Assembly (NCBI GenBank): GCA_003566715.1
Contig: PXCF01000144.1
Location: 1-33,462 of the forward strand
DNA: 33,462 bases
Direction: 5' to 3'
Origin: Cryomorphaceae bacterium
Lineage (GTDB): Bacteria; Bacteroidota; Bacteroidia; Flavobacteriales; Schleiferiaceae
Shown here: positions 8,071-11,243 of the stretch, in pieces
Position numbering within the stretch: position 1 is the first letter of the stretch
Layout: each line of letters begins with the position of its first letter
Notes under the pieces: model-generated
Told to the model about the DNA's origin: nothing
Databases searched by the model: none
The model's input: the letters and a program-made list of their open reading frames with translations, nothing else
Made by a program: the position numbers and the translations under genes

Positions 8071-9654
8071 ATGCGTTTATTTTTAAAAATCACGGGAGTC
8101 GTTTTGCTATTGATATGCATTTCGGCTTATGTATTTTGGAAATACTTCGCAGAGGACATAGTGGTTGAGGCTTTGCAAAAAGAAGCGGAGACGGCTGTAA
8201 ACGATATTTGGCAAGAGGAAATCATCTATCATCCCGGAACGATTGTGATAGACATTGCCAGAAGAAAAGCCGTGCTTAGCAATTATTCGATTTATGTTTT
8301 GGCCAATGGAGATACCATGGCTTCCATTGTGCTTCCTTCGATTGAGGTCAAATGGAAAAGCACATTGGGGTTGATAAAACAGGAAAAGATTCATTTCCGC
8401 AGTTTGATTGTCAAAGAGCCAGAAATTAAATATTCCACGTCCGTTAACCTTAAAAAGAGAGATCAAGTAAAACCCATTGATGTTCACGTTGACTTGCTGG
8501 CGTTCCAAGGTGCAGCGATTGAAATTGATTTTGCAGAATCAACCCAAAATTTGTCGGCCAAGGCAACGGTGAGCACCCATAACTTTTCCTGGATAGCTCA
8601 GCAACCTTTCCACTTGGTCCATGATTTTTTGCGGAAGTCTAAGCTTAGTATAATCGATATTTACAGTGATCTGAGTGACGGGTTTCACCGAGTTATGCTC
8701 GATAAATTCATCTTGGATGGTGCGAAAGGTGTTGTGCATGTTAGTGGGCTTGTCTTTGAGCCTAAATTCGACCGTGCCACCTTTGCCAAAAAGCGCGGTG
8801 TTGAAACAGATCACATTGTATTTACAGCAGATTCGATTGATGTTCTTAGAACAAATTTTGCCGACAACGATTCATTAATGATTGAATTGGTCGCTTTCTA
8901 TGGTTCAGAACTGCTGGCGCATCGTGACAAAAACTACCAAATGCCCGAAGATCGCTTTGTACCAATCCTGGTGGATAATCTTCTTCAATGGTCGGTTCCT
9001 CTCTTTGTTGAGCAGGTAACATTTAAGGATGGAAACATAGTATATGAGGAACTAGCTGATGGAAAAGAGGAGGCCGGCAAAGTGATGTTTAGCGATTTTG
9101 ACGGCAGTGTATATAATGTCACGAATCTACCGGACTTAATAGAAGATGAGGAAAAGTTGTTGGTACTGGAGGCAACAACACGTTTGTATGGAAAGGGGCG
9201 ACTAACCGTCGAAGTAAACTATGACTTACTTTCTGAAAACGGGAGGTTTTGGGCACAGGGGCACCTGAGGGCTATGGATTTACAATCAGCCAATGATATT
9301 CTTACGCCGCTTTCTACACTGGAAGTTAAGACTGGCCATTCAGAAGCGGTTTATTTCACTTTCGGAGGGTCTCGTTTACGCGCACATGGCGATTTGATAT
9401 TTCGCTACGACGACTTAAAGTTGAAATGGGAGAAAGACAGTAAAATGATAAAGCGGTTTGTGAAAAACACATTAACCAATTGGGTTGTCCCAACATCTAA
9501 TCCCAATAGAAAAGGTCAGCACCGCATTGGCGCTATAGACTTTGAGCGAGACACTCAGCGCTCGATGTTTAACTACTGGTGGAAGTCACTGGAAACCGGA
9601 TTTTTATCGGTAATGGGTGTGCGTGATGCCAAGGAAATTAAGAAGGAGGAGTAA
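8071..9654 (+). CDS. Membrane-anchored protein, possibly AsmA/DUF748-like
   Basis: 527-aa ORF with one N-terminal TM helix; overall pattern resembles AsmA-like repeats, no firm family match by eye. Confidence 0.6.
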   Translation: MRLFLKITGVVLLLICISAYVFWKYFAEDIVVEALQKEAETAVNDIWQEEIIYHPGTIVIDIARRKAVLSNYSIYVLANGDTMASIVLPSIEVKWKSTLGLIKQEKIHFRSLIVKEPEIKYSTSVNLKKRDQVKPIDVHVDLLAFQGAAIEIDFAESTQNLSAKATVSTHNFSWIAQQPFHLVHDFLRKSKLSIIDIYSDLSDGFHRVMLDKFILDGAKGVVHVSGLVFEPKFDRATFAKKRGVETDHIVFTADSIDVLRTNFADNDSLMIELVAFYGSELLAHRDKNYQMPEDRFVPILVDNLLQWSVPLFVEQVTFKDGNIVYEELADGKEEAGKVMFSDFDGSVYNVTNLPDLIEDEEKLLVLEATTRLYGKGRLTVEVNYDLLSENGRFWAQGHLRAMDLQSANDILTPLSTLEVKTGHSEAVYFTFGGSRLRAHGDLIFRYDDLKLKWEKDSKMIKRFVKNTLTNWVVPTSNPNRKGQHRIGAIDFERDTQRSMFNYWWKSLETGFLSVMGVRDAKEIKKEE

Positions 9655-9786: not shown

Positions 9787-9818
9787 GTGTTGTTCAGAGC
9801 AGATTATCATTTTAACCA

Positions 9819-9880
9819 ACGATACTTAAAATTATCGTTTATTTAAGCGATATTTTGAATTATCGTTTATTTGTACGATA
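9819..9880. promoter_or_regulatory. Array of five alternating ACGATA/TATCGT half-sites, 14-nt pitch, upstream of the SatD-family gene
   Basis: ACGATA 9819, TATCGT 9833, GCGATA 9847, TATCGT 9861, ACGATA 9875. Confidence 0.75.
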
Positions 9881-9888
9881 TTTGCATT

Positions 9889-10533
9889 ATGATTGCAGTC
9901 ATTAATGGAGATATTATCTCATCAAGGAAATTGGTAAACCAGAAAATATGGTTGTCGCCATTGAAAAACCTGTTCGCTACATGGGGTATAAGTCCTAAAA
10001 ATTGGAAAATACACTCGGGCGATTTTTTTCAATTGGAGATTGCTAACCCCCAAGATGTGCTGATTAAGGCTTTAGAAATAAAAGCACTCATCAAAAAAGT
10101 AGAACCACTTGATGAAAGAAAAAAAATAGGTGCCATAGATGTTAGGCTGGCTATTGGGATTGGTGAAAAAACGTATGCCGGTAATGGTGTATCTGAGAGT
10201 AATGGACCTGCATTTCATTATTCGGGCGATAAATTTGAATCGCTGAAAAAAGAAAATGTAACCATGAGTATAAAAACCCCATGGCCTACATTTGATGAAG
10301 AAATGAATTTGTACTTAAAGTTAGCCGGAATCTTTATGGACAAATGGTCGGTTTCGTCCGCAGAATTAATGCAAATTGTACTTAATAATCCAAACTTAAC
10401 TCAAGAAGAAATAGGACGTCTATTAGGAATCAAACAAAACTCTGTAAGTGGTAGGTGGAATAGAGCCAACGTAGATGAAATAATGGAAGTCAACAAAATG
10501 TTTCAGAAAAAAATCAAAACCCTGTTGCAATGA
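9889..10533 (+). CDS. SatD family protein with C-terminal HTH
   Basis: MIAVINGDIISSRKL...IHSGDFFQLEI...VRLAIGIG...; HTH-like LTQEEIGRLLGIKQNSVSGRWNRA; ATG chosen over the earlier TTG at 9871. Confidence 0.8.
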   Translation: MIAVINGDIISSRKLVNQKIWLSPLKNLFATWGISPKNWKIHSGDFFQLEIANPQDVLIKALEIKALIKKVEPLDERKKIGAIDVRLAIGIGEKTYAGNGVSESNGPAFHYSGDKFESLKKENVTMSIKTPWPTFDEEMNLYLKLAGIFMDKWSVSSAELMQIVLNNPNLTQEEIGRLLGIKQNSVSGRWNRANVDEIMEVNKMFQKKIKTLLQ

Positions 10534-11243
10534 TGGTGCTTATAAAACTCTTGCTGGCTCATTTAGTAGGAGATTTTCTATTGCAACCGAAGTCATGGGT
10601 TTATGATAAAGAACTATTCAAGGCGAAGTCGTTCAAGTTATATGTGCATATAGTCATTCACGGCCTGCTCGTGCTGTTGGTGTTTTGGGATTTACAATAT
10701 TGGTTTTTGGCGTTATCAATCACAGTGGTTCACGGAATAATCGATGCCATTAAATTATACGCCCAAAGAGACAGCAATAGACCTCTTTGGTTTTTAATAG
10801 ATCAAGGTCTTCACTTACTGAGCATTTTCGGATTGTGGGTGGTGTTCTTTGAGCCGGAGATTAATCTACATGCAGTATTAGAAAACCCAAATGTTTGGAT
10901 CTATTTCGTTGCCATACTTTTCATAACGGTGGTTTCGGGAATCGTTATGAAAGAGCTTATGTCTAGTTGGTCTAGTGGCTTATACGACGACGATGAAGAA
11001 TCGTTAAACAATGCGGGCAAGTACATCGGCATGTTGGAGCGCATTTTTGTGTTCATTTTTGTGATTACAGGTAATTGGGAAGGTATTGGCTTTTTGTTGG
11101 CCGCTAAATCCGTATTCCGCTTTGGCGACTTAAAAGAGTCGAAAGACAGAAAACTCACCGAATACATTTTGATTGGAACATTGTTGAGTTTTGGTATTGC
11201 CATCGCAACAGGCATGATCGTGCTAAATCTAATAAGATATTGA
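10530..11243 (+). CDS. DUF3307 membrane protein
   Basis: LLLAHLVGDFLLQPKSWVYDKE...HGIIDAIKLY pattern; ATGA overlap with the SatD gene. Confidence 0.8.
   Translation: MMVLIKLLLAHLVGDFLLQPKSWVYDKELFKAKSFKLYVHIVIHGLLVLLVFWDLQYWFLALSITVVHGIIDAIKLYAQRDSNRPLWFLIDQGLHLLSIFGLWVVFFEPEINLHAVLENPNVWIYFVAILFITVVSGIVMKELMSSWSSGLYDDDEESLNNAGKYIGMLERIFVFIFVITGNWEGIGFLLAAKSVFRFGDLKESKDRKLTEYILIGTLLSFGIAIATGMIVLNLIRY

What the first reader, a model, noticed from the sequence alone, without database searches (positions are those of the whole stretch)
9819..9880. Five-half-site operator array with exact 14-nt pitch in front of a SatD/DUF3307 gene pair
Seen directly: ACGATA, TATCGT, (G)CGATA, TATCGT, ACGATA start at 9819, 9833, 9847, 9861 and 9875. 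Orientation strictly alternates, so each adjacent pair is a dyad. The last half-site ends 8 nt before the ATG of a protein with a C-terminal HTH. Inference: a cooperative, probably autoregulatory, operator for the SatD-family protein, which would make SatD plus DUF3307 a self-regulated module.
Basis: partly seen in the sequence, partly recalled or inferred. Interest (0 to 1): 0.66.

Follow-up and report, generated by a model that had tools for sequence, protein, structure and literature searches.

The report
Self-regulating operator with a coevolving code
In front of an uncharacterised two-gene unit lies a row of six evenly spaced, alternately flipped DNA words; across the Bacteroidota the spacing stays fixed while the word changes together with the DNA-reading residues of the protein encoded just behind it, so this is very probably that protein's own switch.

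Summary
Half-sites lie exactly where stated, at 14-nt pitch, and a sixth, TATCAT, lies at 9805, so the array is 9805-9880. It is unique in the genome. The same architecture, with 4 or more alternating half-sites at 14-nt pitch (14/15 in some lineages), precedes 151 of 180 homologous genes, against 0.4 expected in dinucleotide shuffles and none of 1,734 control windows. The half-site word (usually NNNATA) takes more than 20 forms. Its three variable bases covary best with recognition-helix residues 184, 185 and 188 of the downstream protein (R/K188-G, E188-C, S/T185-C, A185-T, N185-A, A184-A, N184-G). In ten Flavobacterium-type genomes the array occurs only at this locus. The Bacteroidota -7 element overlaps the array in phase in many homologues, which points to repression by occlusion. 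DUF3307 follows in 177 of 180. The N-terminal domain is predicted to be a GGDEF/class III cyclase/Cas10-type palm with two nearly invariant Asp. I conclude that this is a single-target, cooperative autorepressor, probably nucleotide-responsive, of a palm-HTH plus membrane-protein operon. Autoregulation is strongly supported by sequence; repression, ligand and DUF3307's role are inferred. The window protein itself misses the Pfam SatD model.

The parts
9805..9880 (.). Operator array: six alternating inverted half-sites, 14-nt pitch (28-bp period)
9805..9810 (-).
9819..9824 (+). Half-site 2 ACGATA
9833..9838 (-). Half-site 3 TATCGT
9847..9852 (+). Half-site 4 GCGATA
9861..9866 (-). Half-site 5 TATCGT
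9875..9880 (+). Half-site 6 ACGATA, 8 nt before the ATG. Its TA is where the TAnnTTTG -7 element begins in many homologues; the window's copy (ATATTTG) is a poor match
9889..10533 (+). Regulator gene, 214 aa: N-terminal palm domain (GGDEF/class III cyclase-like; D8, G44-D45) and C-terminal HTH (recognition helix 183-192)
10530..11243 (+). DUF3307 membrane protein (PF11750, E 9.8e-27), overlaps the regulator by 4 nt (ATGA); operon partner in 177 of 180 homologues

Best explanation
The array is the operator of the gene directly behind it. The encoded protein (palm domain plus HTH) binds each half-site through its recognition helix: residue 188 reads base 1, 185 base 2 and 184 base 3 of NNNATA. 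Subunits bind side by side, in alternating orientation every 14 bp, using two alternating two-fold contacts, so that they coat the whole array cooperatively. The array overlaps the sigma-A-type -7 element, so binding blocks RNA polymerase and represses the regulator-DUF3307 operon. The palm domain, which keeps both metal-binding Asp, probably binds or makes a nucleotide, and this would switch DNA binding and so set the level of the DUF3307 membrane protein. Shown by sequence statistics: array, conservation, covariation with the HTH, single target, operon, overlap with the -7 motif in many homologues. Inferred: binding itself, polymeric contacts, repression rather than activation, nucleotide ligand, role of DUF3307.
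For: Array at (14,14) in 129/180 homologues by the fixed-grid scan against at most 2 in shuffles, and 151/180 allowing 14/15 against 0.4 in dinucleotide shuffles and 0/1,734 control windows. More than 20 half-site words. Mutual information of half-site bases with protein columns peaks at recognition-helix residues: N1-188 z 5.8, N2-185 z 6.2, N3-184 z 4.1. In 73 disjoint relative pairs the top columns are 185, 188 and 184 (p 2e-8 to 6e-6). Code: R/K188-G 51/52, E188-C 25/33, Q188-C 12/16, S/T185-C 46/63, A185-T 59/70, N185-A 6/7, A184-A 27/29, N184-G 40/45. Four HTH residues predict bases better than the nearest N-terminal domain does (0.76 vs 0.60 per base below 60% identity; random 4-residue sets mean 0.42, max 0.70). 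Array only at this locus in the own genome and in 10 other genomes. TAnnTTTG in 84/138 against 16 expected, 44 in one phase with the half-site. DUF3307 adjacent in 177/180. Fold; D8 177/180 and D45 179/180.
Against: No binding or expression data. The window's own promoter does not match TAnnTTTG exactly, and the array so close to the ATG would imply a nearly leaderless mRNA if that element were used. 18 of 180 homologues lack a clear array, and some of these keep an intact HTH (L126, L138). Foldseek E-values for the palm domain are modest (best 2.5e-3, TM about 0.4). Some of the covariation is shared ancestry: a few columns outside the recognition helix also rank (82, 115, 171).
Confidence: 0.85

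Rival explanations
1. The protein binds the array but acts as an activator, or switches between both, recruiting RNA polymerase when nucleotide-bound.
For: In some homologues the array ends up to about 100 nt before the ATG, leaving room for a promoter downstream.
Against: In the commonest arrangement the half-site itself supplies the first two bases of the -7 element (44 cases in one phase), which fits occlusion rather than activation.
Confidence: 0.12
2. The repeats act as RNA: alternating half-sites form hairpins in a 5' leader (attenuator or translational control).
For: The strand folds better than shuffles (z -3.1), as any inverted repeats would.
Against: The words covary with the protein's recognition helix, pitch is fixed at 14 whatever the letters, stems are short and AT-rich, and the array overlaps or lies upstream of the likely -7 element, so most of it may not be transcribed.
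Confidence: 0.03
3. Another cellular regulator with many targets binds here, and the adjacent protein does not.
For: None specific.
Against: Array found at only one locus per genome tested; specificity follows the adjacent protein's HTH.
Confidence: 0.02
4. A selfish or neutral 28-bp tandem repeat that expanded by slippage.
For: Copy number varies from 4 to 18, and spacers are partly repeated too.
Against: Half-sites are conserved while spacers vary; geometry is kept across more than 20 unrelated words and many families; covariation with protein residues.
Confidence: 0.02

Closest known systems
SatD family (Pfam PF16264), named after a protein of the Streptococcus mutans sat operon (from memory)
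   Same: 32 of 46 close homologues hit the model (best E 1.7e-10)
   Different: The window protein does not reach it; I found no description of a DNA target or function for the family in the literature held
Cooperative repressors on repeated short boxes such as MetJ on met boxes, and RptR (PMC12255303), which represses a defence island through three direct repeats
   Same: Array of short boxes at the promoter; RptR represses its native promoter
   Different: Here orientation alternates strictly at 14 bp, both dyad spacings are equal, and the word diverges rapidly with the protein. MetJ is cited from memory
GGDEF diguanylate cyclases, Cas10 palm, class III adenylyl cyclases, Pycsar cUMP synthase (7r65)
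   Same: Predicted fold of the N-terminal domain; Asp at the end of beta-1 and Gly-Asp in the beta2-beta3 hairpin
   Different: No sequence match; E-values 2.5e-3 or weaker; fused to an HTH; catalysis unknown
DUF3307 (PF11750)
   Same: Second gene is a clear member (E 9.8e-27)
   Different: Function unknown; no structural relative found
Protein-DNA specificity correlation in MerR regulators (Korostelev et al. 2016, PMC5045206)
   Same: Same kind of analysis; [quoted passage not shown]
   Different: Different family; here one regulator with one target

Membership tests
SatD (PF16264) | Hit above curated cut-off by this protein | tested here: not met
   no hit
SatD (PF16264) | Close homologues hit the model | tested here: inconclusive
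   32 of 46 at E<1, best 1.7e-10
DUF3307 (PF11750), second gene | Hit above curated cut-off | tested here: met
Autoregulatory operator | Array conserved upstream of orthologous genes | tested here: met
Autoregulatory operator | Operator specificity covaries with the recognition helix of the adjacent gene product | tested here: met
Autoregulatory operator | Overlap with promoter core | tested here: inconclusive
   clear in many homologues; window's own -7 element is imperfect
Autoregulatory operator | Binding by the protein and change of expression | not testable with these tools
   needs EMSA and reporter assays
Nucleotidyl cyclase / GGDEF palm domain | Fold | tested here: inconclusive
   probability 0.99-1.00 to many GGDEF, Cas10 and cyclase structures, E from 2.5e-3, TM about 0.4
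Nucleotidyl cyclase / GGDEF palm domain | Two metal-binding carboxylates | tested here: met
   D8 in 177/180, D45 in 179/180
Nucleotidyl cyclase / GGDEF palm domain | Nucleotide binding or cyclase activity | not testable with these tools
   needs biochemistry
Known anti-phage defence system | Match in PADLOC | tested here: not met
   only a weak HTH match, E 0.006

The most novel reading that the evidence does not exclude
A widespread, undescribed Bacteroidota regulatory system: a nucleotide-sensing or nucleotide-making palm-HTH protein that polymerises in alternating orientation along a 14-bp-pitch array, represses only its own operon, and releases a DUF3307 membrane enzyme or effector when the nucleotide signal changes. 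Its DNA specificity diversifies so fast that more than 20 words exist, giving a readable recognition code.
Probability: 0.4. Interest if true: 0.8.

Novelty: new variant of a known kind. Interest (0 to 1): 0.64.

Why it matters
It gives an uncharacterised operon a testable regulatory mechanism and a partial recognition code (residues 184, 185 and 188 to three DNA bases) that can be checked by simple swaps. The fixed 14-bp geometry with a drifting word is a natural series for studying how a transcription factor and its only operator coevolve. If the palm domain binds a nucleotide, it links an unknown nucleotide signal to an unknown membrane protein.

Tried and rejected
A first pitch scan with 7-nt windows was the wrong test, because an odd window shifts inverted copies out of register; it was replaced by 6-nt windows with two independent spacings. 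The single control window scoring 1.0 was a run of N and was discarded. Phage contigs and plasmids: no relatives found. PADLOC and PHROGs: nothing useful for the regulator. DUF3307 structure: no PDB match. Literature: no paper on the SatD-DUF3307 pair found. The accession look-up was a dummy and returned nothing. Sigma-70 promoter scan: no more sites than shuffles. The other genomic dyad, C153:38131, was not pursued beyond listing nearby ORFs.

Full report
Observation. A sixth, TATCAT at 9805-9810, continues the 14-nt pitch with one mismatch, so the array is 9805-9880: TATCAT, ACGATA, TATCGT, GCGATA, TATCGT, ACGATA. The dyad pattern is expected 0 times by chance in the window; the array score is not reached in 3,000 dinucleotide shuffles and no other place in the window shows such an array. 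In the whole genome every triple of half-sites with at most one mismatch lies here.

Genes. The ORF at 9889 (214 aa) has a C-terminal HTH; the next ORF (10530-11243) overlaps it by four bases and is DUF3307. The regulator gets no significant Pfam or NCBIfam hit, but 32 of 46 close homologues hit SatD (PF16264) with best E 1.7e-10. I therefore call it SatD-like.

Conservation of geometry. Homologues came from relatives, a phylum sample and named genomes (regions 21-23), 180 non-redundant after location by HMM. Scanning the 150 nt upstream with two free spacings, the only spacings that stand out are those adding up to 28 (with a minor class at 29); (14,14) gives 129/180 arrays at or above 0.8 against at most 2 in shuffles. 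Allowing 14/15, 151/180 pass 0.8 against a mean of 0.4 in dinucleotide shuffles and none of 1,734 control windows from the same loci. Six half-sites is the commonest length (60 of 138 arrays), range 4 to 18.

The word changes. The half-site is usually NNNATA, but the triplet differs by lineage: GTA, CCG, GTG, ACG, GGA, CTT, ATG, CTA, CAG, CAT and others. This is not a fixed motif of a global regulator.

Covariation. Between protein columns and half-site bases, mutual information peaks in the recognition helix (helix 183-192 in the model): residue 188 with base 1 (z 5.8), 185 with base 2 (z 6.2), 184 with base 3 (z 4.1). To lessen shared ancestry I used 73 disjoint pairs of near relatives on a tree of the N-terminal domain: columns 185, 188 and 184 again lead, though a few other columns also score. 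The code is chemically sensible: Arg/Lys188 with G (51/52), Glu188 with C (25/33), Ala185 with T (59/70), Ser/Thr185 with C (46/63), Asn185 with A (6/7), Ala184 with A (27/29), Asn184 with G (40/45). The window protein has N184, S185 and G188, and its word is ACG, as the code predicts. With relatives above 60% N-terminal identity removed, the four residues 182/184/185/188 predict bases at 0.76, the nearest N-terminal domain at 0.60, and random residue sets at 0.42 on average (max 0.70). Those four residues were chosen on the same data, so this figure is somewhat optimistic. A similar method found real contacts in MerR regulators (PMC5045206).

Single target and promoter. In ten Flavobacterium-type genomes all array matches lie at this one locus. 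The Bacteroidota -7 element TAnnTTTG (PMC7366714) occurs in 84 of 138 upstream regions against 16 expected, and in 44 it starts at the last two bases of the half-site: operator and promoter share bases, which fits repression by occlusion. The window's own -7 element is a poor match, so here this step is inferred.

Protein. AlphaFold gives a confident model (pLDDT 93.3, pTM 0.91). Foldseek finds GGDEF cyclases, Cas10 palm domains, a cUMP synthase and adenylyl cyclases with probability up to 1.00 but modest E-values and TM about 0.4. D8 at the end of strand 1 and G44-D45 in the strand 2-3 hairpin match the metal-ligand places of this fold (positions from my knowledge of the fold) and are nearly invariant. 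The one homologue found that has lost both Asp (L160: K and N) also lacks the array and a detectable DUF3307.

Partner. DUF3307 is adjacent in 177/180, most often with a 4-nt overlap. It is an all-helical predicted membrane protein with invariant His/Asp (H11, D15, H40, H44, H68, D72, D91, H95), which suggests a metal-dependent membrane enzyme (inference). No fold match. No phage or plasmid relatives of the regulator were found.

Mechanism. Both dyad types have the same 14-bp spacing and arrays are open-ended, which suggests a chain with two alternating two-fold contacts rather than isolated dimers (inference). Binding would cover the promoter and repress the operon; the palm domain would sense or make a nucleotide that changes this (inference).

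Verdict. Autoregulatory operator arrays are a known kind; this one is a new variant with a readable specificity code and an unusual sensor domain.

Noticed in passing
L022 (G002:C163) against L006 (G002:C35): One relative carries a second, broken copy of the operon whose array uses GCAATA/TATTGC while its intact copy uses a GGAATA-type word: two specificities in one genome.
   Followed up: partly
L160 (G075:C8): Homologue with D8 to K and D45 to N, no array and no DUF3307 detected downstream: joint loss of all features.
   Followed up: partly
window 10530-11243: DUF3307 has invariant H11, D15, Q19, H40, H44, H68, D72, D91, H95, E170, R171, E184: looks like a metal-dependent membrane enzyme of unknown type.
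   Followed up: partly
L011, L103, L104, L106, L164, L166, L174: Some lineages use 14/15 alternating spacing (29-bp period) instead of 14/14; L166 has at least 18 half-sites next to a masked (N) stretch.
   Followed up: no
L167, L168, L171: A divergent lineage uses a longer word, AAATCAACC, at the same pitch.
   Followed up: no
window 8071-9654: 527-aa protein upstream with no Pfam hit.
   Followed up: no
L007 and L026: L007 (G016, same family as the window) appears to be the same contig as NZNV01000001.1 (equal contig length and upstream DNA), so the window is probably from the family of Owenweeksia sp. EAC74 in Flavobacteriales.
   Followed up: partly
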